IMG/VR virus record: IMGVR_UViG_3300009762_000029
Location: 1-25,193 of that record
Length of the DNA: 25,193 nucleotides
Strand: one strand, 5' to 3'
Origin: a virus
The first letter of the stretch is position 1. Each line of letters begins with the position of its first letter. Below are positions 13,494 through 25,193 of the stretch, one piece after another. Both the position numbers and the translations under genes were made by a program. The notes below the pieces were generated by a model. The model did not search any database and was not told where the DNA came from. It saw only the letters and a list, made by a program, of their open reading frames with translations.

Positions 13494-14486
13494 TTACCAT
13501 GGCAATGGCGAACCGGCAACGCTGGCCGCCGAATTGTACCACCCGTTTAGGGTGTTGTATGACCATCCCCGCCGCAACCTCCGACTGTAGTTGTCAACCG
13601 CCGCGCGGTCCTGCATCCGATACTCGCGGAACAGGCGCCTGTATTCCGCCTTCGCGCCGGTAATCAGGAAGCGAAAGTCCGATCCCGTCATGCGGCTGTC
13701 CTGCTTGTTCGCTTCCGCCCACTCGTAAGCCTTGCCCTTGACAAGTTCCATAACGCAGTCTTCTCCGACTTGCGTTGGGAGCGTATCGCTCGCGTTCACC
13801 AGATCGACACCCTTTCGGAGCCCGTACAGTTGGTACGTCAGCACGTATTGCGGAGGCCCCCACAATTCATGCATCAGGTAGCCCGGCGTCAGGCTGGCCG
13901 GGTTCTGATCGACCTGGTATGGAACGACGTGCGTTGGGATGAAGAACAGCGAGCGTTGCGGGTCCTGGAAGTCTAGCCATGCTCGCGTCTTATTTGTCGC
14001 CAACTCGTTGTAGTTGATGATGTCCCGGATGCTCAACCACTGCCAGAAGTCCAACATCGGAGAAGGGTAGTAGCATTGGCTGATCGAGTACGGGACGTTC
14101 GTGCCGGACGGCTCCTGGTAGATCCGGTCGAGCGTGAGCACCACAGCGCTTGGGTTGGTCGCATCCAGGCCCCAGATGTTGTAGACCGTCCCGATCCCAA
14201 CTCGAAATTGCCGCTGGATTATTTGGCTGGGTGGCGAGAAGGCGACTGCATTTATCGCGGCTGAGGCCGCCGCATTGAACGTGACCGTGTTCTGCCCTTG
14301 CGTGACGGTCACTGTCCCGGCGTTGACGATTGCGGGCGAGGTCCAGTTGGCATCGAACAGGAGAAACGACCAGAGGCACTGGCGGCGTACATCGCGCCAC
14401 GCTCGATTCACAAGCGTCTTCGCGAAGTCGGGGGCCAGCTTGGGCACGAGCCCGCAAGTCTCATCAACCATTGAGCCGAAAGACAC
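13494..14486 (-). CDS. Head-tail adaptor (connector) protein, 330 aa, GTG start
   Basis: The protein probably forms the ring beneath the portal, as do T7 gp11 and P22 gp4. The N-terminal helices (ETCGLVPKLAPDFAKTLVNR, then AWRDVRRQCLWSFLLFDANW), a beta-rich insert, and a C-terminal helix set (LVKGKAYEWAEANKQDSR, then AKAEYRRLFREYRMQDRAAV) match that family's layout. The start is GTG at 14486, four bases after GGGAGG; an ATG five codons later lacks a ribosome site. It is unusually long for the family (gp11 about 196, gp4 about 166), mainly from the beta insert. A second protein of similar N-terminal form is at 10469-11821. Confidence 0.72.
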   Translation of the reverse strand: MSFGSMVDETCGLVPKLAPDFAKTLVNRAWRDVRRQCLWSFLLFDANWTSPAIVNAGTVTVTQGQNTVTFNAAASAAINAVAFSPPSQIIQRQFRVGIGTVYNIWGLDATNPSAVVLTLDRIYQEPSGTNVPYSISQCYYPSPMLDFWQWLSIRDIINYNELATNKTRAWLDFQDPQRSLFFIPTHVVPYQVDQNPASLTPGYLMHELWGPPQYVLTYQLYGLRKGVDLVNASDTLPTQVGEDCVMELVKGKAYEWAEANKQDSRMTGSDFRFLITGAKAEYRRLFREYRMQDRAAVDNYSRRLRRGWSYNTLNGWYNSAASVAGSPLPW

Positions 14487-14502: not shown

Positions 14503-14868
14503 TTAGATTCCGTTTACCGTCAAGCGGGCACCGACAGTGCTCATATTCGTGTTGTTCGCGACTTCCGTGCTGTTCGCCGCGGTGTAGGCTTGCACCGTTA
14601 TGGACGAGTAGACGGGCGCATACGTTTCGTTGGAGTTCGCCGACCCGGTGGGAGGAAGCGCCTTGTACTGGTACGTTGAGTTGCTGCCGATTCCCAAAAA
14701 ACTGAAGTGAGCGTCCTCGATCCCGACCATTCCGAGATCGCTGGCGTACAACTTGTCACCGCCAGCCAAGTAGTTGTTGTTGCCGAAGTAGTCGCCCTTC
14801 CATGTGATGCCGCCACGCGGGTTAGCGCGCGGGTAACCGGGAAGCGGAATCTTCAAGAGATTTGACAT
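14503..14868 (-). CDS. Ser/Asn-rich structural-type protein, 121 aa
   Basis: The protein is rich in Asn, Ser, Tyr, Gly and Thr with little charge (for example GDYFGNNNYLAGGDKLYAS and NSTEVANNTNMSTVGARLTV). A beta-sandwich structural protein, such as a decoration or head-completion protein, is the best guess. AAAGGTG lies about five bases before ATG. It is just before the head-tail adaptor gene. Its composition resembles the 255-residue protein after the capsid gene, but I cannot show shared ancestry by eye. Confidence 0.65.
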   Translation of the reverse strand: MSNLLKIPLPGYPRANPRGGITWKGDYFGNNNYLAGGDKLYASDLGMVGIEDAHFSFLGIGSNSTYQYKALPPTGSANSNETYAPVYSSITVQAYTAANSTEVANNTNMSTVGARLTVNGI

Positions 14869-14907: not shown

Positions 14908-15255
14908 CTATACGCCAGTGTCGGGCGGTTTGGCTAGCCGGTCCTCTGTGGCCGTAATCAACTGGCCTACTTGCTTGAGCGCTTTTCGGCGTTCGCAGTA
15001 TGGCAGGCTGATGTCATTGGCTTTATCGACTAGCGCGGCAACGCCAGGCCCCCCGTCTTTCACCGCTTGATCGATCAGCCAATCCGTCACCATGCATTTT
15101 TGCGCGCTGCGGATATACAGGAGCGGTGCCAGAATAGCATCGCCCTCAAGAGTGCATTCCGCGTCATACGTTTTTCCGCCCGCCGACTTCGCCGAGAGAT
15201 GAACTCTGAGCACTGGAGCGCCGAACACCTCGGAAAACTTCGTTTTTATCGTCAT
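14908..15255 (-). CDS. Hypothetical protein, 115 aa
   Basis: The ATG overlaps the preceding stop (ATGA). A beta-rich N-terminus (VFGAPVLRVHLSAKSAGGKTYDAECTLEG without its edges) is followed by helices (VTDWLIDQAVKDGG and RRKALKQVGQLITATEDRLA). No family is recognised. The pair with the 77-residue gene makes a small co-expressed module between the glycosyltransferases and the structural genes. Confidence 0.68.
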   Translation of the reverse strand: MTIKTKFSEVFGAPVLRVHLSAKSAGGKTYDAECTLEGDAILAPLLYIRSAQKCMVTDWLIDQAVKDGGPGVAALVDKANDISLPYCERRKALKQVGQLITATEDRLAKPPDTGV

Positions 15256-15485
15256 GGGAGTTTTTCGATCTTCAGAGACCCCTCGACGCCCTTGTCAATC
15301 AGTTCCCCTGCCATCCGAAGGGTTCGGGAGAGGACTGCCCCGTTCCCCCTGATGCTCATGGAGTGGCCCTCGTGCATGATTTGTACGGACACCTCCCCAG
15401 TGTTGTCTTGGTGGTGACAAACCACCACATGCCCCAGTAAGGTCCCTTGCGTCCCGTCTGGGAGTACGAGCCGTTGGTTATCCAT
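15252..15485 (-). CDS. Hypothetical protein, 77 aa
   Basis: The start is clear: AAGGAG four bases before ATG, in the 8-base gap after the glycosyltransferase. The product has beta-like character with a His/Cys cluster (GHVVVCHHQD) and alternating hydrophobic strands (EVSVQIMHEGHSMSI), then a helix and a short strand (GSLKIEKL). I recognise no family. The stop overlaps the next start (ATGA), so the two are co-translated. The small beta-barrel look could fit a virion or nucleotide-binding protein; no evidence decides. Confidence 0.72.
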   Translation of the reverse strand: MDNQRLVLPDGTQGTLLGHVVVCHHQDNTGEVSVQIMHEGHSMSIRGNGAVLSRTLRMAGELIDKGVEGSLKIEKLP

Positions 15486-15493
15486 ATTGCTCC

Positions 15494-16189
15494 TTATATA
15501 ACCGTCTTTGCTAGTTCATCCGCCCATTCCTTCAGCCCCGGTGCATTCCCGTTGAAGTGGAGGAACATCGGGTAGCTCCCCGTCACCGTATTGAACGCCT
15601 TCCCATCGCGCATCTTGATGAGGTGCGCGTGCGGCCCGTACATGCTCTGAAATATCCGGCATTCCAAGTCCAGCGTGAAGGCGGCGCCATCCTGGTACAT
15701 GAGGTGTAGCAACTCCTGGGAAGTTCCGCCGGCCGTCTCCTGCCCTTGGTCCCAGCGCCACATCATCGCCTCCCACATGGCGATCAGTTGCTCACGCCGT
15801 CCGCAGTACTGCCCGCCGTTGATTGCGAACCAGCGGTGTCTCCCCGCCAGATGGGCGTACGCTTTTTCCCACGGGCCTTTCGGCCAGACCCACCATTCGA
15901 CGCTCATGATGAGATCCGGGGCAGAGTCGATAAGCACTTTCAACTCTTCTGGGTTCCACCGGCTGATGATTGTATCGAAGGTGTCCGTAGCAACGACGTA
16001 TTTCTCTTCGCGCGCCTTGAGCCATTCAATCGTCGAACGCAAATCCTCCATGCCGTGATGGGGCTCTCCCACCCCGAGCACTTGAAGGTTTGTCCCAAGC
16101 CGTGCCGCGGAATTACGGAGCGCCGCCCATCTTCCGTAGTCATCGGTATGCGCCCCACCAACCACCAGGATGCTCACCGAAGGCCCCAT
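15494..16189 (-). CDS. PLOD/procollagen-type glycosyltransferase-like protein, 231 aa
   Basis: The sequence matches the layout of PLOD-type (lysyl hydroxylase N-terminal) glycosyltransferase domains: VVATDTFDTII (D69-x2-D72) at the metal site, FAINGGQYCGRR at 121-131, a YQDGAAFTLD segment at 165-174 replacing the usual DDQ motif, an IFQSMYG part at 179-185, and HFNG at 211-214 near the end. These proteins move galactose or glucose onto hydroxylated lysine or other acceptors in eukaryotes; phage and giant-virus versions are known but mostly uncharacterised. The frame begins with GTG at 16201; I prefer ATG 16189. The start overlaps the previous glycosyltransferase's end by 16 bases. The TGC/Trp-rich middle (MSVEWWVWPKGPWEKAY) is unusual. 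Confidence 0.8.
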   Translation of the reverse strand: MGPSVSILVVGGAHTDDYGRWAALRNSAARLGTNLQVLGVGEPHHGMEDLRSTIEWLKAREEKYVVATDTFDTIISRWNPEELKVLIDSAPDLIMSVEWWVWPKGPWEKAYAHLAGRHRWFAINGGQYCGRREQLIAMWEAMMWRWDQGQETAGGTSQELLHLMYQDGAAFTLDLECRIFQSMYGPHAHLIKMRDGKAFNTVTGSYPMFLHFNGNAPGLKEWADELAKTVI

Positions 16190-16995
16190 CCCAGACCGCA
16201 CGCGCCGACAATGCGCCCGTCCTTCGTCCGCATCACTGGGTTGCCGAAACCGTCATGAATCAGTTCGCCTTCATCCGCAAACGCCGGCTGTCCGTTTGGA
16301 GTCGAGAGCACGGCCTTCATCTGGCGCACCTTTTGCTCATTCGAGATGTCGTACTGGTGCCACATAAACGGGTTCCCGCCGGTGCCATCCGGCCGCCGGA
16401 AGCCGAGTTTCCCGCAAATCTCGGACAGCGTTGTCGCCTTGAGGCCGTAGCGAGCGATGTTCCGCGACAGCACGTAATCGTCGATCAAGTGCTCAGGCTG
16501 ACAGCAGCCCGAGTGACGCTCTGCAATTGTAATGTGAATGTTCTCCAGCGCCGTTTCGAGCGACAGGTCTTCGAGTGGATGCCATAGGTCCAGGCACCAG
16601 TCGGACGCGATGGCACACCAGTTGCAACTCCCGATATGCCGTCCGTCGCGCCGGAAGTAGTTATCGTACGCCCATCGGATGCCCGCGAAGTCCTTACCGT
16701 TGTGGCAAACCGTATCCTTGCTCAAGTGGTCCGTGGGGTCGAACATCTCCGGCGAGATCAGCGTGTCCGCGTCGAAAAACAAATTCCAGTCTGCCCCCGT
16801 TTCCCTGGCGAGATCGCCAACCTGCAATTTTTCGTACGTGACCGGCATTGCGGTGAACCGCCGCTTCGAGATCACAAAGAAGTCGGCACCGATTTTCTTG
16901 GCGTACGCCTCCATCAGCGGGAACGTGAGGGATGTGATTTCTGGGCAGTAGTTGTTGATGCAGAGGGTGTAGATCGTTTTTTTCAGGTTCGCCAT
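16174..16995 (-). CDS. Glycosyltransferase, GT-A fold type, 273 aa
   Basis: GT-A enzymes transfer a sugar from a nucleotide-sugar donor using a metal held by a DxD motif. Here residues 75-77 of FFDADTLI are DAD, after a typical Rossmann-like start (KKTIYTLCINN...) and a variable region (YAKKIGADFFVISKR). Later residues ADEGELIHDGFGNPVM form an acidic C-terminal part. I chose ATG 16995 rather than TTG 17031, which directly follows the previous stop; neither has a strong ribosome site. The end overlaps the next gene, which encodes a different glycosyltransferase. Cysteines are unusually many (for instance HSGCCQPEH), possibly structural. Donor and acceptor are unknown; modifying a virion protein, phage DNA or the host envelope are the main options. 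Confidence 0.8.
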   Translation of the reverse strand: MANLKKTIYTLCINNYCPEITSLTFPLMEAYAKKIGADFFVISKRRFTAMPVTYEKLQVGDLARETGADWNLFFDADTLISPEMFDPTDHLSKDTVCHNGKDFAGIRWAYDNYFRRDGRHIGSCNWCAIASDWCLDLWHPLEDLSLETALENIHITIAERHSGCCQPEHLIDDYVLSRNIARYGLKATTLSEICGKLGFRRPDGTGGNPFMWHQYDISNEQKVRQMKAVLSTPNGQPAFADEGELIHDGFGNPVMRTKDGRIVGACGLGWGLR

Positions 16996-17031: not shown

Positions 17032-17283
17032 CTACCACTGCCGCTTTATGCGGGCGATGACCCTGCGGAAATACCGGGAGACTCTGCGGTGGAGAGGGTA
17101 GGCTTCGGGGTAGCGCGCGATACAGTAGTCAACGCCGTACCGATCTTCAACCCGCTTGCGCGCTTCGGGGTCTGCTGCAATGGCTCGGGCTGCGAACAAG
17201 CGGCCCTTCTCCATTGCTATCGGATCGTCGAAACTTGAGGGTCTGACTGGGGGGCCGGGGATGGATGCCATGCCCCCCATCAT
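17032..17283 (-). CDS. Hypothetical protein, 83 aa
   Basis: The frame opens at TTG 17295, but two ATGs follow at 17283 and 17280; I take the first. No start has a good Shine-Dalgarno site, and a third ATG at 17271 sits close after a G-rich run. The product has a Met/Gly/Pro-rich N-terminus, a helical middle (AMEKGRLFAARAIAADPEARKRVEDR without the ends) and a strongly basic C-terminus (RRVSRYFRRVIARIKRQW). Its stop is directly followed by TTG codons of the glycosyltransferase frame. Function unknown. Confidence 0.6.
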   Translation of the reverse strand: MMGGMASIPGPPVRPSSFDDPIAMEKGRLFAARAIAADPEARKRVEDRYGVDYCIARYPEAYPLHRRVSRYFRRVIARIKRQW

Positions 17284-17301
17284 ACCGCTGGCCAAGGAGG
17301 A

Positions 17302-18069
17302 TTACCAGCGGTATGTTCGGCTCAGGCCGATGTCCACCAGGGAGTAGTTCCCGGCGGACGGGAGGGTCTCAGCCGGACCTACATAGCGCACCATGGCTTG
17401 ATCGATTTGGGTGTACGGGAGCGTAGCGGCGTTGTTCCCGCTCGCCGCGTAGTTCGCGCCCACCAACACGTTGAACAGGCCGACGCTGGCGTTCGAGTTC
17501 GCTGAGGACTGAGCCGCCAGGTACACGCCGCACCCGATTGCCGGCGTGCCGGTCAGCCCGGTTCCGAATGTCGAAGTCCCGTTATTGCCGGCAAACTGGA
17601 CGGTACACTTGCCGGATTCCTGGATGACCCATGAATTCCCAGCGCCCGGGTAGTTGATGAAGACGCCTGCAAACAGCGCCACGCCGATGTTGGCCGCCTC
17701 GTCGGATGTGACCTGGTACCTCATGTCCGTTTGCGGAGTGCTCACGTTGTTCGCGTTGCCGGGCGAAGCCGCGAGATCCCAGAACGCCGCGCGGCCGCGT
17801 TGCGGTACCGACGTGGAGTTTGGGTTCGTCCGCACGTATCGGTAGGTCCCCGTGTAGAGGTTACCAACAGAAGTGTTGGAGAGCGCCAGGGCGTCGGAAG
17901 GGCTCAGGATGAACCGATCCCCCGGAAGATTCGCGTCCCCTTGGGATGCAACGAACGGGGCTCCGGCCAGCGATCCGCCGACGACGGAATCTCCCGAGTT
18001 GTTCGAGTTCAGGTACTTTCCGTTGCTCAGATACGGAAAGGCTTGTTTTGAAAATCGTCCGCCTGCCAT
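17302..18069 (-). CDS. Probable head decoration or surface structural protein, 255 aa
   Basis: The protein is Ser/Asn/Gly/Ala-rich and beta-strand-like throughout (for example YRYVRTNPNSTSVPQRGRAA and AAQSSANSNASVGLFNVLVG), with few charged residues. That composition is typical of phage capsid decoration or fibre-like proteins. It starts with AGGAGG four bases before ATG, directly after the major capsid gene, as decoration proteins often do. No family is recognised. Its composition resembles the 121-residue product at 14503-14868 and the 150-residue one at 5794-6246. Abundant expression is suggested by the strong ribosome site. It could instead be a tail component. Confidence 0.65.
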   Translation of the reverse strand: MAGGRFSKQAFPYLSNGKYLNSNNSGDSVVGGSLAGAPFVASQGDANLPGDRFILSPSDALALSNTSVGNLYTGTYRYVRTNPNSTSVPQRGRAAFWDLAASPGNANNVSTPQTDMRYQVTSDEAANIGVALFAGVFINYPGAGNSWVIQESGKCTVQFAGNNGTSTFGTGLTGTPAIGCGVYLAAQSSANSNASVGLFNVLVGANYAASGNNAATLPYTQIDQAMVRYVGPAETLPSAGNYSLVDIGLSRTYRW

Positions 18070-18077
18070 ATTGCCTC

Positions 18078-19241
18078 CTATTGGCCGAACCCGACAATCT
18101 GCCAGTTGTCACGCGGCGAAGGCGTGTAGCAGTTCAGGGCATTCTGGTAGAACATCACTATCATGTCCGCGTTCGACTGCGAATAGACCGGAACGCCGAA
18201 GTGGTGGTTGTAGCGCGGACTGGCCGCTGGCCGAAGCTTCCAATCCTGCAACCGGAGTAGGAACAGCGGCTCACCGGGCTTGCAGGACGTGCTGGCCGGA
18301 TAGCCCGAGGCCGAGGATACCGTTGCCGGTGTGGTGAAGGGCGAAAGCGCGAGAGACATGCTCTGGGACAACCCGGTGGGCAGCAGAGCACCGAACTTCG
18401 TGGACGGTGCCAGCTTGTCCACGTGGATGAACATTTCCAGGATCTTCACGCCGGTCATACCGATACGCGCGTCGTTCTCCTTGCTGGCCGACATAGTCTC
18501 TTCGACGAAGGACTGCTGCGGTTGGATGCGCTTCAGCAGTTGGCCGAAGACCGCTTTGTTGCCGAGAGCGGTATCGGGCGGTTGGACGCACGCCAAATAG
18601 CCATCCAGGACCGTGGCGTAGTTGGTCGGGCCTACGTTTCCCGCTTGATCGCCGGCCCAGTACACGCCGGAGTTGATCGTCGAACTCACCGCGCCGTTGC
18701 GGAGTTGGTTGCCGTAGCTGGTGTAGACGTTTCCCAGGAAACCGGGGTCCACACCGTTGGAAAGGGCTTCATCCGCGCCGTTGATGTAGATCGACCGGTC
18801 CTGCAACACCGCGGTCGATGCTGCTTGCCCGTGGTAGTAGAAGTCGATGTTTATGTCCGTGGCGTACGATTCGACCGCGTTCTTCATGTACGCATCGTAC
18901 GTGCTCACCGCAGCGGCCGGCCCGGTGTTGATGACTTCGGTCTGCCACTCGTTGATCGGAATGTCGTAGGTGTACTCGCGGGGGGTGAAGGACAGCGCAG
19001 CCAAAATCTGCTGCTGAACGACCGTACGATCGGCTCCGGGAGTCGAGGCGCCGCCGTTGACCCGGTTGTACTGGAAGACTTCCTGCATGAACAGGCCGCC
19101 AGTGAACGGATCGTTTTGAGCGTAGTGGCGCATGATGCGCTGAAACGCGCCTTTAGCGAAGAAGTTGTCGTAAACGACATCCCTCTCCATTTCGGCGAGA
19201 GTTGTTGCTGAAATTTGGTCAAATGTCGGATCTGCGGACAT
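18078..19241 (-). CDS. Major capsid protein, 387 aa
   Basis: This is the likely coat protein, probably of the HK97 fold used by tailed phages. It directly follows the scaffold-like gene and has the best ribosome site in the block (AAAGGAG, six bases before ATG). The N-terminal part (about 1-110) has FFAKGAFQRIMRHYAQNDPFTGG and the strand-turn pattern FTPREYTYDIPINEWQTEVIN, typical of coat proteins with an N-arm and E-loop. A mid region is Asn/Gly/Thr-rich, and the C-terminus (LFLLRLQDWKLRPAASPRY, then PVYSQSNADMIVMFYQN) looks like the A/P-domain strands. Size fits. There is no protease domain or visible cleavage site. Confidence 0.82.
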   Translation of the reverse strand: MSADPTFDQISATTLAEMERDVVYDNFFAKGAFQRIMRHYAQNDPFTGGLFMQEVFQYNRVNGGASTPGADRTVVQQQILAALSFTPREYTYDIPINEWQTEVINTGPAAAVSTYDAYMKNAVESYATDINIDFYYHGQAASTAVLQDRSIYINGADEALSNGVDPGFLGNVYTSYGNQLRNGAVSSTINSGVYWAGDQAGNVGPTNYATVLDGYLACVQPPDTALGNKAVFGQLLKRIQPQQSFVEETMSASKENDARIGMTGVKILEMFIHVDKLAPSTKFGALLPTGLSQSMSLALSPFTTPATVSSASGYPASTSCKPGEPLFLLRLQDWKLRPAASPRYNHHFGVPVYSQSNADMIVMFYQNALNCYTPSPRDNWQIVGFGQ

Positions 19242-19258: not shown

Positions 19259-20122
19259 CTACTGCACCGGCCCCTTCATCTGGGTCTCCACTGCTCGGGC
19301 AATGCGCCTTGCAGCCCGATCTTGCTCCGTTCCGTCCTCCCAAGGCATCTTGTCCGTGCCGGGCCGCTTCGGGATGAAGGGGGTGTGGGACGGCAATGCC
19401 GTACGCATCATCGGGTTTCCGTACTGGGCCGCCATCTCGGCACGGGTTCGTTCCACCGCTTCCGCGGCGATCTTGTCATCGTGCTCTTTCTGTTTCGCGG
19501 CGGCCATCGCACTCCGCTTTCCCGGGAAGTCGAACTTCTCCGCGACAAACTGATCGAGCGGTTTCCGGGTTCCCTTGCACTCTTCGCGAAGCGCCTGCAT
19601 CCCGCGCATCTGCTGCCCGTTGACCACCGCCTCGTACTCGAAGAGGGACTTGCCCCCGGTGAGATAGGAGTACTCGGCTGCGATGTCGTGGGCCATCGTG
19701 ATCGCGCGTCCCTCCAAGTCCGAGAACTGGCCGTACGACTGCTGGAGGTCTGCCTTCGTCACGTACTCGGCCGTCTTGGCATCCTTCTCGACTGCGGCGG
19801 CGGCGGCGGCGACTTTGGCTTCGGCCTCCTCTGGGAGATAGTTGTACTCTCTGGCGATCTTTAGTTGGGCTTGGGCTTGGGCCAGCTTTTGCATCAGGTC
19901 TTGAGACTTCCGCTCTTCAGCGGTAAGACGCGGCTGCCACTCCTGGTCGAGTCTCATCTGCCACTGAGAATCGCGGTCCTTCAGCGTTTCAACTTCGGTC
20001 GAGATGGCGGCGTACTTCGTCTCCATCGATTCGCGGAACCTCTCGTTTTCGAGCAACGGCTTGACTGCATTTAAGTCCGCGTCCGTCCATCCTTGCGACT
20101 TAAGAATCTCTTCAAGTTTCAT
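19259..20122 (-). CDS. Scaffold-like capsid assembly protein, 287 aa
   Basis: Scaffolding proteins direct coat-protein assembly into a procapsid and then leave. This one lies directly between the head-entry genes and the major capsid gene, as scaffolds do, and is strongly helical: a Glu/Gln/Ala-rich region (about 65-120, with KLAQAQAQLKIAREY) likely forms a coiled coil. A run of six alanines within a longer Ala stretch is encoded by a GCC-type repeat (19794-19811). The C-terminus is basic (RRIARAVETQMKG), as expected for a coat-binding end. Length is near that of P22 and T7 scaffolds (about 300). The start has GAGGGA six bases upstream. No protease active site is evident. The call is from position and composition, not a recognised motif. 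Confidence 0.75.
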   Translation of the reverse strand: MKLEEILKSQGWTDADLNAVKPLLENERFRESMETKYAAISTEVETLKDRDSQWQMRLDQEWQPRLTAEERKSQDLMQKLAQAQAQLKIAREYNYLPEEAEAKVAAAAAAVEKDAKTAEYVTKADLQQSYGQFSDLEGRAITMAHDIAAEYSYLTGGKSLFEYEAVVNGQQMRGMQALREECKGTRKPLDQFVAEKFDFPGKRSAMAAAKQKEHDDKIAAEAVERTRAEMAAQYGNPMMRTALPSHTPFIPKRPGTDKMPWEDGTEQDRAARRIARAVETQMKGPVQ

Positions 20123-20910: not shown

Positions 20911-21122
20911 GTGCCGAGTTTCCCGCGCTCCTCCGCAACGGCGTGCTGTATCGTCCCGCCGGGGCCGACGTGGATAAGCACGGACCCGAAGAAGCGCTCC
21001 GCCTTCAGGATATTCCCAATTTGCGCGATGTCTTCCCACGAGCGTACCTCGAATGTCCTCCGGCGGACAATCTCCTGCTGCTCATTGATGGGAGTTGGGG
21101 TCCAGGTGGCACTGAGCCTCAT
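20907..21122 (-). CDS. Hypothetical protein, 71 aa, coupled to portal
   Basis: The ATG at 21122 shares one base with the portal stop (TGATG), so translation probably re-initiates after portal. The same frame stays open further upstream, but that part is out of frame inside portal and was left out. The protein has an acidic/basic helix (INEQQEIVRRRTFEVRSWEDI) and a compact C-terminal strand-turn part (GSVLIHVGPGGTIQHAVAEE). I recognise no family. It is the last gene before a promoter-terminator island, and its stop codon overlaps the TTGACA element there. Confidence 0.68.
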   Translation of the reverse strand: MRLSATWTPTPINEQQEIVRRRTFEVRSWEDIAQIGNILKAERFFGSVLIHVGPGGTIQHAVAEERGKLGT

Positions 21123-23182
21123 CAGCTTTCTTTCACTATCGTGCGGGTCCCGCCGTCCTTCTGTGCCATTTGCGGCGCGGCCTGCCCGGAAGGTGGACGG
21201 CCGCCTTTTGACGTGCTCCCGCTTTGCTTCGATCCCGGCGCTCCACCCATCAGACCTTGCTCGATACCGAGAGTCTGAATGATCTTCTGCATCCTCGCGG
21301 CGAAGATCACTTCCTCTTCCTTCTCCGCTCGGAACCGGGCCTGTTCGGTGTTGCCTTCCGGCTTTTCCACGTTCGGGATGTCGCAGGACTCCATGATGGT
21401 GGCTCCACTGATCTGGATGCCGCGCTGGCGCAACTGGAGCAATAGCAGCCGGTGCGTCATTTGGGTGTATTCGTGTGCTGAGTGGGGTGTTATCCAGCAC
21501 CGAACTTGACCCATGAACCACTTAGACCGCTGCATCTGTGTGTACATCGACGGCTTGACTTCTTCGTTTTCGCCGTGAATCACTTCGCTCGGAAGATGCG
21601 ACGGGATGATGGAACTCGGGTTGTAATCGAATACCTGAAGAGATAGCCCATCCGGACCGAGGTACTGCATGAGCCGAGAAGTGTCCATGTACTGCAAGAC
21701 CAACCACCCAACCTGCGACCCTACCTGACCAAGCCCCTCCTCCATCGACCGGGAGATGTCCTTCACGATTGGTCCCTGCGCTGAAATCAGAGCTTCAAGT
21801 TGGTCCATTCCCTTGCCGAGTGCGCGCGCCTTCCCGAGTTCCAGGATGTCGCGAGTCTGGAACAGGTAGTCCAATTCCTCCGTCAAGTATTTGAGGACTT
21901 CGAGTTCCTCGGCGTGTATTCGGTAGACTTCCGCCGGGACTGCTGGCTCCAGCGGGTTATCGACCGCATCGCCGTCGTACCCGATGCGCGTATTTGGCTG
22001 AAACGGATCGAAGTCCTCGGCTTCCTTAGGGTTTACTCCGTTGATGTTGTACTTCAGCGGAAGGCCCTGAATCGCACGCACTTTGTTGACGCATCCGCGG
22101 CCGATCTCATCGATGGACTTTTGCAGTTCCCACCCGTCTCCGATAAGCGAGAAGCCCATCGGCTCCCAGGGCCACTTGTCGAGAGAGAACGGGATCAAGT
22201 CCAATTTCCCATGCCAGTTGAACGCCGGGCCGTCGTACGGGATGCAGTCCTCAGTCGAGATGATGAGGCGCCGCTGGGGGTAGATCCGCGCATCCAACTC
22301 ATTCGCCTTGCGCGGCTTTCCATCGGTTCCGGGGATTTCTTCGCCGTAGGACGGCACTTCGTAATACCAGGACGCCCCCGGCTCGCCCATCGCCATGCGA
22401 TGCCCCGAGGTGTTGATGCTGCAATCGTTGATGGTTGTCCAGCGCATTTGCACGTACTGATCCGAGAGCCTATCTTCCTGCTTACGTCGGAACCATGACG
22501 TAACGCGCTTCCATGCGTTCTGTTCGCCGGCCTTCCGTGCTTCCGCGGCATACCAGTATTTGCATTGGTCTGGTCGGATGCGGTCCTGATAGAGCGGGAA
22601 ACGCCAGTGGCCCTCGTAGATTGGAGTTTCGTCCAGCAGCGTCACCGAGTACGCGCGCTGGTAGTCCCCATCGGCGGGAAGTTGCACTGGTAGAACGCAG
22701 GGCTGGCCGTACGTCAACAGTTCGATGGTTCCGTGGCCTTGAAGGTCGCGTCTCCACACGGGACGAATCCAGCCGGTCCCCGTTGCCGCCGCATACGCCA
22801 ACACTTCTTTGATAGCTTGGTCCCAGTACCCCTCCAGGTACAGCGCCCAGACGGTTTTGTTCATCGCTAGGGCGTAGTCCTTGAACGCCTCGCCCGCGTT
22901 GTATCCCCAGAGTGGCCGGATGTTCGCGAGACCGGAGATCATTGTGCGGACGTTCGTTTTTAGCCGATGCCCCGAAAGGTGAGAGCGGTAGCTGAGTAGG
23001 GTGTTCTCCGTGTCCAGGCCACTTAACACGTCCAGGGATTTGCGCCAATCTCGGAAGCCGCGCTGAGATTCAGTCCATGCCGCTCCCTGCTCGACCGTCT
23101 CCCGAAGCCACCCAAGGCGGTACTTCTCGCTGGTTTCGGCTCCTGGTGCTTGCCACTCTTTCGGTACACCGGCGTCAAACAT
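21122..23182 (-). CDS. Portal protein, 686 aa
   Basis: The portal forms the dodecameric ring at one capsid vertex through which DNA is packaged and ejected. The call rests on size (podovirus portals are usually about 500-750 residues), on the acidic-aromatic helical character, and on position before scaffold and major capsid genes. Visible features include an N-terminal helical region (about 25-130), a central wing-like part with strands such as YEGHWRFPLYQDRIRPDQCKYWY, a region near 345-365 (IPFSLDKWPWEPMGFSLIGDGWELQKSIDEI) resembling portals that co-locate membrane/wing and stem helices, and a disordered Gly/Ser/Gln-rich C-terminus. The start is backed by GGGAGG six bases upstream. The stop shares its A with the next ATG (TGATG). 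Individual catalytic residues do not apply; homology was judged by eye. Confidence 0.85.
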   Translation of the reverse strand: MFDAGVPKEWQAPGAETSEKYRLGWLRETVEQGAAWTESQRGFRDWRKSLDVLSGLDTENTLLSYRSHLSGHRLKTNVRTMISGLANIRPLWGYNAGEAFKDYALAMNKTVWALYLEGYWDQAIKEVLAYAAATGTGWIRPVWRRDLQGHGTIELLTYGQPCVLPVQLPADGDYQRAYSVTLLDETPIYEGHWRFPLYQDRIRPDQCKYWYAAEARKAGEQNAWKRVTSWFRRKQEDRLSDQYVQMRWTTINDCSINTSGHRMAMGEPGASWYYEVPSYGEEIPGTDGKPRKANELDARIYPQRRLIISTEDCIPYDGPAFNWHGKLDLIPFSLDKWPWEPMGFSLIGDGWELQKSIDEIGRGCVNKVRAIQGLPLKYNINGVNPKEAEDFDPFQPNTRIGYDGDAVDNPLEPAVPAEVYRIHAEELEVLKYLTEELDYLFQTRDILELGKARALGKGMDQLEALISAQGPIVKDISRSMEEGLGQVGSQVGWLVLQYMDTSRLMQYLGPDGLSLQVFDYNPSSIIPSHLPSEVIHGENEEVKPSMYTQMQRSKWFMGQVRCWITPHSAHEYTQMTHRLLLLQLRQRGIQISGATIMESCDIPNVEKPEGNTEQARFRAEKEEEVIFAARMQKIIQTLGIEQGLMGGAPGSKQSGSTSKGGRPPSGQAAPQMAQKDGGTRTIVKES

Positions 23183-24103: not shown

Positions 24104-25193
24104 TCAAGAACTTTTTCGGCGCGCTCCGATTATCACAACATCGGAATCTAGCGTTGAAAACAGAACATCCTGGGAAAGCCGTCTGGCGGTCATGGCGACG
24201 TAATTCGCATTCAGCTCGATGCCGATAGCCCGGCGTCCTTGCTCTTTGGCAACCAGGGCCGTTGTTCCAGCTCCGCTGAATGGGTCCAGGACAAGTCCGC
24301 CGGCCGGGCACCCGGCCAGAACACACGGCAGGATCAACGCAGGCGGGAACGTGGCGAAGTGAGCTTCTGGAAACGGGTCGCCGTTGATGGTCCAGACATC
24401 GCGTTTATTCCTGGTTTCCGTGACTGTGACGAAAGCAGCAGTACCGTTTCCCGACGCTGACACGTTGGCTCCGGTGGCTTGGCCTCTCGAAAGCGACTTC
24501 TCACCTAGCGATACGTTTTTGCCGGCGTAGGTGGATCGCTCCGCTATTGCCGCAGCGTCGTACCAATATCGCTCGGACTTTGCCAGCAGGAAGATGTACT
24601 CATGGCTCCGCGTTGGCCTGTCTGTGACACTCTCCGGCATCGGAGCAGGTTTAGCCCAGATGATGTCTGAACGCAACCACCAACCCGCTTCCTGAAGCGC
24701 GAATGCAACTCGCCATGGGATGCCAACCAGGTCTTTCGGCTTCAGTCCGTCGGGCACCGCACGCTGGCTAAATTTCTCTCCTTTGAACTTCTGCCCGCCT
24801 GTGAACCCGTCCACCCCGTTGCGCTCAGCATCCGCACGCCCGATCGTTCCGCCGCTATAGGAGTCTCCCAAGTTCAACCACAGCGTCCCGTCATCCCGCA
24901 GCACCCGCCGCACCTCGCGGAAGACATCAACCAACCGGTCCACATAAGCCTCGGGAGTCGGCTCGAGTCCAATCTGAAAATCAATCCGGCGTGCGCCACA
25001 CTTACGACAAGTGCCATGGAACTGCTGCAACCCAACCGAAGTATCCCGATCTGATCCGCCGCCGTTTATCGGCGACGCTGGACCATCGCCGCATCTACGC
25101 GGCTGAAGATGATCGCACTCTGTGTCACCACCATCCCACATCGCCGTACCGTAATCTCGCAGTCCCCAGTATGGAGGACTGGTAACGCAGCAG
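24104..25193 (-). CDS. DNA methyltransferase (N4-cytosine/N6-adenine, beta-type order), 5' end outside window
   Basis: This gene transfers a methyl group from S-adenosylmethionine to an exocyclic base amine. The first ATG in the window (25141) is not the start. The frame is open upstream to the edge and encodes the catalytic motif TSPPYW just before that ATG, so the gene is truncated by the window; the first whole codon begins at 25192. After the catalytic motif come a Cys/His pair (ECDH) and a CRKC pair, a likely zinc-binding insert. Then come a conserved phage-methyltransferase stretch (EVRRVLRDDGTLWLNLGDSY) and, near the C-terminus, the SAM-binding motif DPFSGAGTT followed by GIELN. Catalytic motif before SAM motif is the beta order. 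About 362 residues are visible. It probably shields phage DNA from host restriction. Whether it modifies C or A, and its target site, cannot be read here. Confidence 0.93.
   Translation of the reverse strand, partial: CCVTSPPYWGLRDYGTAMWDGGDTECDHLQPRRCGDGPASPINGGGSDRDTSVGLQQFHGTCRKCGARRIDFQIGLEPTPEAYVDRLVDVFREVRRVLRDDGTLWLNLGDSYSGGTIGRADAERNGVDGFTGGQKFKGEKFSQRAVPDGLKPKDLVGIPWRVAFALQEAGWWLRSDIIWAKPAPMPESVTDRPTRSHEYIFLLAKSERYWYDAAAIAERSTYAGKNVSLGEKSLSRGQATGANVSASGNGTAAFVTVTETRNKRDVWTINGDPFPEAHFATFPPALILPCVLAGCPAGGLVLDPFSGAGTTALVAKEQGRRAIGIELNANYVAMTARRLSQDVLFSTLDSDVVIIGARRKSS

What the first reader, a model, noticed from the sequence alone, without database searches (positions are those of the whole stretch)
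15494..16995. Two unrelated glycosyltransferases side by side within the structural operon
One is a GT-A type enzyme with DAD and many cysteines; the other has the DTFD/INGG/HFNG set of PLOD-type enzymes. They overlap by 16 bases and lie between capsid/decoration and tail genes rather than with DNA-modification genes. That placement suggests the target may be a virion protein, possibly the Ser/Asn/Thr-rich surface proteins encoded nearby, or a host surface structure. A two-step, two-sugar scheme is possible. Glycosylated virion proteins are rare in phages.
Basis: partly seen in the sequence, partly recalled or inferred. Interest (0 to 1): 0.62.

Follow-up and report, generated by a model that had tools for sequence, protein, structure and literature searches.

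The report
Swappable sugar-modification cassette beside phage capsid genes
This soil phage carries two sugar-transferring enzymes in a slot between its head and tail genes where sister phages carry other modifying enzymes, or nothing, which suggests that these viruses decorate their own particle with custom, exchangeable sugars.

Summary
15494-16189(-) encodes a PLOD-type glycosyltransferase (Pfam GT_PLOD, 2.5e-14). 16174-16995(-) encodes a GT-A enzyme that matches no family library but has about 80 phage relatives and folds like PBCV-1 A064R, which glycosylates a viral capsid. 'Many cysteines' is incidental: only one is conserved.

Comparative genomics adds the main result. All seven phages of the close sister group keep the GT-A gene in the same slot, between the 255-aa post-capsid gene and the 121/330-aa connector genes. 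Its partner changes: radical-SAM protein (5), fused methyltransferase (1), PLOD enzyme (the window only). Three outgroup lineages have an empty slot. In the wider family, 24 of 66 non-redundant loci have a radical-SAM partner and 16 of 66 a methyltransferase (6 fused).

In slot-bearing phages the two proteins flanking the slot are enriched in Asn (8-15% versus 2-7%), while the major capsid and 330-aa proteins are not. This is one phylogenetic contrast, so it is only suggestive.

Best explanation (0.6): a virion-glycan cassette in which the GT-A enzyme adds a sugar and the partner extends or tailors it. Glycosylation itself was not tested. The PLOD enzyme lacks several collagen-glucosyltransferase donor residues, so collagen-type chemistry is not predicted.

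The parts
16174..16995 (-). GT-A glycosyltransferase (P0002), 273 aa, constant member of the cassette
   Evidence: No library match; about 80 viral relatives; invariant D75xD77, E55K56, R107, LWHPLE, D172D173, H213, K222; AF2 pLDDT 86, best PDB match PBCV-1 A064R
15494..16189 (-). PLOD-type glycosyltransferase (P0001), about 231 aa, variable member of the cassette
   Evidence: Pfam PF25342 2.5e-14; PDB R699 and LH3; residue comparison. Alternative GTG start at 16201
17032..17295 (-). 87-aa protein at the 5' edge of the slot; a similar 84-aa ORF lies at the same place in L111 (11365-11619)
   Evidence: Similar by eye (EKGRLFAARAIAADPEARKRVED / ERGRLMTAHLIANDPEARKRGED)
17302..18069 (-). 255-aa Asn-rich protein immediately after the major capsid protein; likely head decoration or fibre protein and candidate acceptor
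   Evidence: Conserved at 46-57% in sister phages; Asn 9.4% against 3.6-5.7% in slot-less relatives; fold not predictable (pLDDT 29)
14503..14868 (-). 121-aa Asn-rich protein at the 3' edge of the slot, candidate acceptor
   Evidence: Conserved in sister phages, weakly in L116, L117 and Tunturi_1; Asn 10.7% against 2.3-6.5%
15252..15485 (-). 77-aa protein between PLOD-GT and the 121-aa gene, unknown
   Evidence: No library match above cut-off
14908..15255 (-). 115-aa protein, unknown
   Evidence: No library match
13494..14486 (-). 330-aa tail/connector protein, conserved 3' landmark of the slot
   Evidence: Tunturi_1 gp11 'tail protein', 7e-56
18078..19241 (-). major capsid protein, 5' landmark
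   Evidence: PHROG 9953 major head protein; Tunturi_1 major head protein 7e-37
19259..20122 (-). scaffold-like protein
   Evidence: Conserved upstream of the capsid gene in sister phages
21122..23182 (-). portal protein
   Evidence: Tunturi_2 portal 6e-73

Best explanation
The pair is the local version of a virion-glycan cassette in a short-tailed phage that probably infects Acidobacteriota. During late gene expression the GT-A enzyme transfers a sugar from a nucleotide donor, with a metal bound at D75/D77 (retaining chemistry inferred from fold neighbours), onto one of the surface proteins encoded on either side of the slot (255-aa or 121-aa protein, probably at Asn-rich segments). The PLOD-type enzyme then adds a second sugar onto the first, as its family does on galactosyl-hydroxylysine. 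In sister phages the same first step would be tailored instead by a radical-SAM enzyme or a methyltransferase, so the surface glycan varies between close relatives. Shown here: gene identities, the predicted fold, the fixed slot, the swapped partner, and the Asn contrast. Inferred: that sugars are transferred, the order of steps, the acceptor protein and residue, the donors, and the biological role (shielding, stability or receptor contact).
For: Fixed slot with swapped contents: scaffold - capsid - 255 aa - [GT-A + partner] - 121 aa - 330 aa in the window, L025, L026, L067 and L111, and as far as the contigs reach in L031 and L045; partner = radical SAM in L026, L031, L045, L067, L111, fused methyltransferase in L025, PLOD in the window. 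Slot empty in L116 (10 bp between the flanking genes), L117 and Tunturi_1. Wider family, 66 non-redundant loci: radical SAM 24, Methyltransf_24 16 (6 fused), epimerase 7; neighbours include HK97-type, P22-type and Tunturi-like capsids and tail fibres. Closest solved fold is PBCV-1 A064R, a capsid-glycan rhamnosyltransferase whose third domain is a methyltransferase (PMC9614988). Asn content of the two flanking proteins is raised in every slot-bearing phage but not in the capsid or 330-aa protein. The family is nearly absent from hosts: 1 of 250 genomes of the host class. Phage relatives of the PLOD enzyme lie next to a collagen-like tail fibre in 12 of 14 marine loci, a precedent for a PLOD-GT placed beside a virion substrate. 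Acceptor-sugar residues E114, W118 and N218 of R699 are kept as E102, W106 and N217.
Against: No direct evidence of glycosylation. The Asn contrast is a single clade-level comparison. NX[S/T] sequons are at most slightly above chance in neighbours across the whole family. Capsid proximity across the family is not significant against random placement on long contigs (8 seen, 4.8 expected, P about 0.10). The PLOD enzyme has lost W48, K62 and D162/D163 of R699, so its donor is unknown and it could be weakly active. The fold match to A064R is generic GT-A level (TM 0.49 by query, 0.62 by target) and GT6/GT34 enzymes score almost as well.
Confidence: 0.6

Rival explanations
1. The enzymes modify a host surface glycan during infection (receptor masking, superinfection exclusion or O-antigen-type conversion), and the place in the late operon only sets timing.
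For: Phage GTs for host polysaccharide are common. Methyltransferase and epimerase partners would also fit host-glycan editing. A chromosomal copy exists in one Acidobacteriia MAG.
Against: No membrane segment is evident by eye in either protein and no flippase or GtrA-type partner was seen. The family is nearly absent from host genomes (1 of 250). The gene is embedded among virion genes in unrelated phages, not in a lysogenic-conversion site.
Confidence: 0.22
2. The enzymes glycosylate modified DNA bases to resist restriction.
For: Many phage GTs act on hydroxymethylated bases. A DNA methylase gene lies at 24104-25192.
Against: No thymidylate-synthase/hydroxymethylase family in 8 related phage records, with the control positive in 9 genomes. 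Tet/JBP also absent, but that search had no positive control. The gene is not linked to replication genes. T4-type DNA GTs are GT-B enzymes (own knowledge).
Confidence: 0.06
3. The enzymes modify a tail protein or other neighbouring virion protein, not the 255-aa or 121-aa protein.
For: Several family members lie beside tail-fibre or baseplate genes. Marine PLOD relatives sit beside a collagen-like tail fibre.
Against: In the window's own sister group the slot is between the 255-aa and 121-aa genes, and these two are the proteins whose composition tracks it.
Confidence: 0.1
4. The PLOD gene is a recent, functionally idle insertion next to an active GT-A gene.
For: It is unique to this phage among relatives and its donor-site residues are altered.
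Against: The frame is intact with a 16-base overlap. Metal (D73, D76), H215 and acceptor-side residues are kept. L002 (about 40% identical) shares the altered donor loop, so it looks like a conserved subtype rather than decay.
Confidence: 0.1

Closest known systems
PBCV-1 A064R (chlorovirus capsid-glycan enzyme; GT34-like GT-A domain + GT + methyltransferase)
   Same: Best solved-fold match of the GT-A enzyme. GT-A domain with DxD. Fusion to a SAM methyltransferase also occurs in the phage family (L025 and 5 others). Virus-encoded, with a virion protein as target in PBCV-1.
   Different: No sequence similarity detected. Phages of bacteria. Partner often a radical-SAM protein. Target unproven here.
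GT_PLOD family: human LH3 GT domain and mimivirus R699 collagen glucosyltransferase
   Same: Same fold family by sequence. Mn2+ ligands D83/D86 become D73/D76. E114, W118, N138, Q164, H216, N218 kept.
   Different: W48, K62, D162/D163 and K222 not kept. No hydroxylase domain in the gene, no accessory domain, no collagen-like substrate in the window.
Virion glycosylation in mycobacteriophages (Freeman et al. 2023, known here only through citing papers PMC12619734 and PMC10955285)
   Same: Phage-encoded GTs; glycans on capsid and tail-tube subunits.
   Different: Different phages and hosts. No homology tested. Interchangeable partner enzymes not described in the papers read here.
Tunturiibacter phages Tunturi_1 and Tunturi_2
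   Same: Homologous portal, capsid, connector and tail proteins.
   Different: Slot between capsid-side and connector genes is empty in Tunturi_1.

Membership tests
GT_PLOD (PF25342) fold family, for P0001 | Score above curated cut-off over most of the model | tested here: met
   53.5 bits vs 27, positions 5-224 of 246
GT_PLOD (PF25342) fold family, for P0001 | Metal-binding DxxD and C-terminal His | tested here: met
   D73, D76, H215 aligned to D83, D86, H216 of R699
Collagen galactosylhydroxylysyl glucosyltransferase (LH3, R699), for P0001 | Donor residues W48, K62 and polyacidic D162/D163 | tested here: not met
   Absent or replaced in P0001 and in L002; kept in marine phage relatives
Collagen galactosylhydroxylysyl glucosyltransferase (LH3, R699), for P0001 | Collagen-like substrate encoded nearby | tested here: not met
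   No Gly-X-X run of 10 or more triplets in the window
GT-A glycosyltransferase superfamily, for P0002 | GT-A fold with DxD | tested here: met
   D75xD77 invariant; the listed fold matches are GT-A enzymes
GT34 / A064R family, for P0002 | Sequence homology to the family | tested here: not met
   No such PDB or Pfam match with single sequence or profile
Virion-glycosylating phage GT | Glycan on a virion protein that depends on the GT | not testable with these tools
   Needs mass spectrometry of virions
Phage DNA-glycosylation system | Base-hydroxymethylating enzyme (thymidylate-synthase family) in the genome | tested here: not met
   0 of 8 related records; the window itself is a fragment, and the records may be incomplete

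The most novel reading that the evidence does not exclude
Phages of soil bacteria carry a modular virion-glycan cassette. A phage-specific GT-A family not in current libraries starts a glycan on Asn-rich surface proteins of the head, and a swappable second enzyme (radical-SAM protein, methyltransferase, epimerase or PLOD-type GT) gives each phage its own surface chemistry, including a radical-SAM step that I know of in no characterised virion.
Probability: 0.45. Interest if true: 0.78.

Novelty: new variant of a known kind. Interest (0 to 1): 0.63.

Why it matters
Virion glycosylation is documented in few phages. A fixed slot between head genes with an unchanging GT and an exchangeable tailoring enzyme would show that surface glycans of phages evolve by cassette exchange, much as bacterial surface polysaccharides do. 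It gives a concrete test set: seven sister phages with three kinds of partner, and three lineages with the slot empty. The GT-A family and its radical-SAM partner also lack any assigned function, so one mass-spectrometry result would annotate dozens of environmental phages.

Tried and rejected
(1) Cysteine-rich metal site in the GT-A enzyme: rejected, only one Cys is conserved. (2) Collagen substrate for the PLOD enzyme in the window: none. (3) Ser/Thr enrichment of candidate targets: does not track the cassette. (4) General enrichment of NX[S/T] sequons near the GT across the family: ratio 1.1-1.2, not convincing. (5) Enrichment of GT next to capsid genes across all loci: not significant on long contigs. 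(6) Fold of the 255-aa protein: AlphaFold failed (pLDDT 29). (7) Identity of the radical-SAM partner: matches many radical-SAM models only below their cut-offs. (8) DNA-modification genes in related phages: none for PF00303; the Tet_JBP search had no positive control. (9) Papers by Freeman 2023 and Pyle 2024 are not held.

Full report
What is there. The window is a 25.2-kb virus fragment, with its genes on the minus strand. Portal, capsid, 330-aa connector, 450-aa and 1293-aa proteins match Tunturiibacter phages Tunturi_1/2, podoviruses of Acidobacteriota (PMC11924767), so the phage is probably short-tailed with an Acidobacteriota host (inference). The two genes of the finding lie between the 255-aa gene after the capsid gene and the 121-aa/330-aa connector genes.

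The PLOD gene. P0001 passes the Pfam GT_PLOD cut-off with twice the required score. Its closest solved relatives are mimivirus R699 and human LH3. Using the published R699 structure (PMC11838735) and an alignment with R699, LH3 and phage relatives, the metal ligands (D73, D76), the UDP-stacking aromatic (F75 for Y85), N128, Q162, H215 and the acceptor-sugar residues E102, W106 and N217 are kept. W48, K62, the D162/D163 pair and K222 are not; the loop with W48 and K62 is read through LH3 and the marine phage relatives, because the R699 piece at hand starts later. L002 (about 40% identical, in a cluster of several putative GTs behind phage structural-type genes) shares the altered loops. The family can therefore be named, but collagen glucosyltransferase activity is not predicted. 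R699 O3 and O6 contacts come from K62 and from W118/D162, so a donor other than glucose is plausible (inference).

The GT-A gene. P0002 matches nothing in Pfam, PHROGs, NCBIfam or PDB sequences, yet relatives occur in at least 80 viral contigs. They share an invariant DxD, EK, LWHPLE, DD, H213 and K222. The model (pLDDT 86) is a GT-A fold. Its first hits are PBCV-1 A064R, then GT6 and GT34 retaining enzymes; in the viral library, GT34 proteins. A064R domain 1 is a retaining, Mn-dependent rhamnosyltransferase of the PBCV-1 capsid N-glycan, and its third domain is a methyltransferase (PMC9614988). The family is essentially viral: 1 hit in 250 genomes of the host class.

The slot. Seven phages with a close capsid gene (window, L025, L026, L031, L045, L067, L111) carry the GT-A gene behind the 255-aa gene and, where the contig reaches that far, before the 121-aa gene (the L045 contig ends first). 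The partner is radical SAM in five, a Methyltransf_24 domain fused to the GT in one (L025), and the PLOD enzyme only in the window. L116 (capsid 50% identical) has the two flanking genes 10 bp apart, and L117 and Tunturi_1 also lack the insert. L116 carries a different set of glycan-type genes a few kb downstream. Across 66 non-redundant loci the partners are radical SAM in 24, Methyltransf_24 in 16 (6 fused), an epimerase in 7 and PLOD in 1. The loci are embedded in virion genes of unrelated phages (HK97-type, P22-type and Tunturi-like capsids; tail fibres). Nearness to capsid genes alone is not above chance on long contigs.

Candidate target. Asn content of the 255-aa family is 7.8-15.2% with the slot filled and 3.6-5.7% without; of the 121-aa family 8.8-12.6% versus 2.3-6.5%. 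Capsid (5.9-8.5 versus 6.8-7.8) and 330-aa (4.6-7.5 versus 5.3-5.5) proteins do not differ. Ser+Thr does not track the slot. The NST/NSS segment conserved in the 255-aa family of slot-bearing phages reads ATATAS in L116. Over 63 loci the nearest upstream same-strand gene has 5.75% Asn against 4.58% expected from other genes of the same locus (none of 20,000 permutations), but such genes are often virion surface proteins, so this is confounded. The clade contrast is one evolutionary event. This evidence is suggestive only.

Precedent from PLOD relatives. In marine phages (Roseobacter phage CRP-6 gp58 and IMG/VR contigs) the PLOD domain is part of a GT25 + GT_PLOD + 2OG-Fe(II) oxygenase protein encoded just downstream of a tail-fibre gene with 22-129 consecutive Gly-X-X triplets: 12 of 14 loci with enough upstream sequence. 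In CRP-6 all 26 Lys of the repeat are at the Y position. The 2OG-oxygenase match by Pfam alone is weak (0.0037), but PHROG 61 covers the whole protein. This is a precedent for a phage PLOD-type GT placed beside a virion substrate; it is a separate finding.

Assessment. The constant first enzyme, the exchangeable second enzyme, the fixed place among head genes, the empty outgroups, the fold relation to a capsid-glycosylating enzyme and the composition change of the flanking proteins all favour a virion-glycan cassette. Host-surface modification remains possible; DNA modification is unlikely. Sugar transfer, acceptor and donor are untested.

Noticed in passing
L022:8287-11899 (Roseobacter phage CRP-6 gp60, gp58); L089-L104: Marine phages encode an LH3-like protein (GT25 + GT_PLOD + 2OG-Fe oxygenase) just downstream of a collagen-like tail fibre with up to 129 Gly-X-X triplets and, in CRP-6, Lys only at the Y position: apparently a complete phage collagen hydroxylation/glycosylation system. 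I found no paper describing it.
   Followed up: partly
L067:11134-12228, L013:10666-11586 and 22 further loci: Undescribed radical-SAM family with CxxxCxxC plus four further invariant Cys (SPASM-like), linked to the GT-A gene in 24 of 66 loci; no NCBIfam model above cut-off.
   Followed up: partly
L116:13344-20069: Sister phage with empty slot carries another glycan-type cluster after the 330-aa gene: TPR/GT9-like, two Methyltransf_24, epimerase, GT9-like.
   Followed up: partly
L024:9983-10822: A GT-A family member 58% identical to P0002 sits alone in chromosomal context (SMC and other host genes) of an Acidobacteriia MAG.
   Followed up: partly
L026:11171-11902, L111:13083-13709, L008:10666-11088: Proteins with the look of GIY-YIG homing endonucleases lie between the GT-A and radical-SAM genes, which might help the cassette move.
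   Followed up: no
L112:16813-18369: Three tandem copies of the 121-aa family in the L026 phage.
   Followed up: no
window 24104-25192: DNA N6/N4 methylase gene upstream of the portal gene.
   Followed up: no
L002:2270-6382: Cluster of a MptE-like protein, GT2-type enzymes and a PLOD-type GT behind phage structural-type genes.
   Followed up: no
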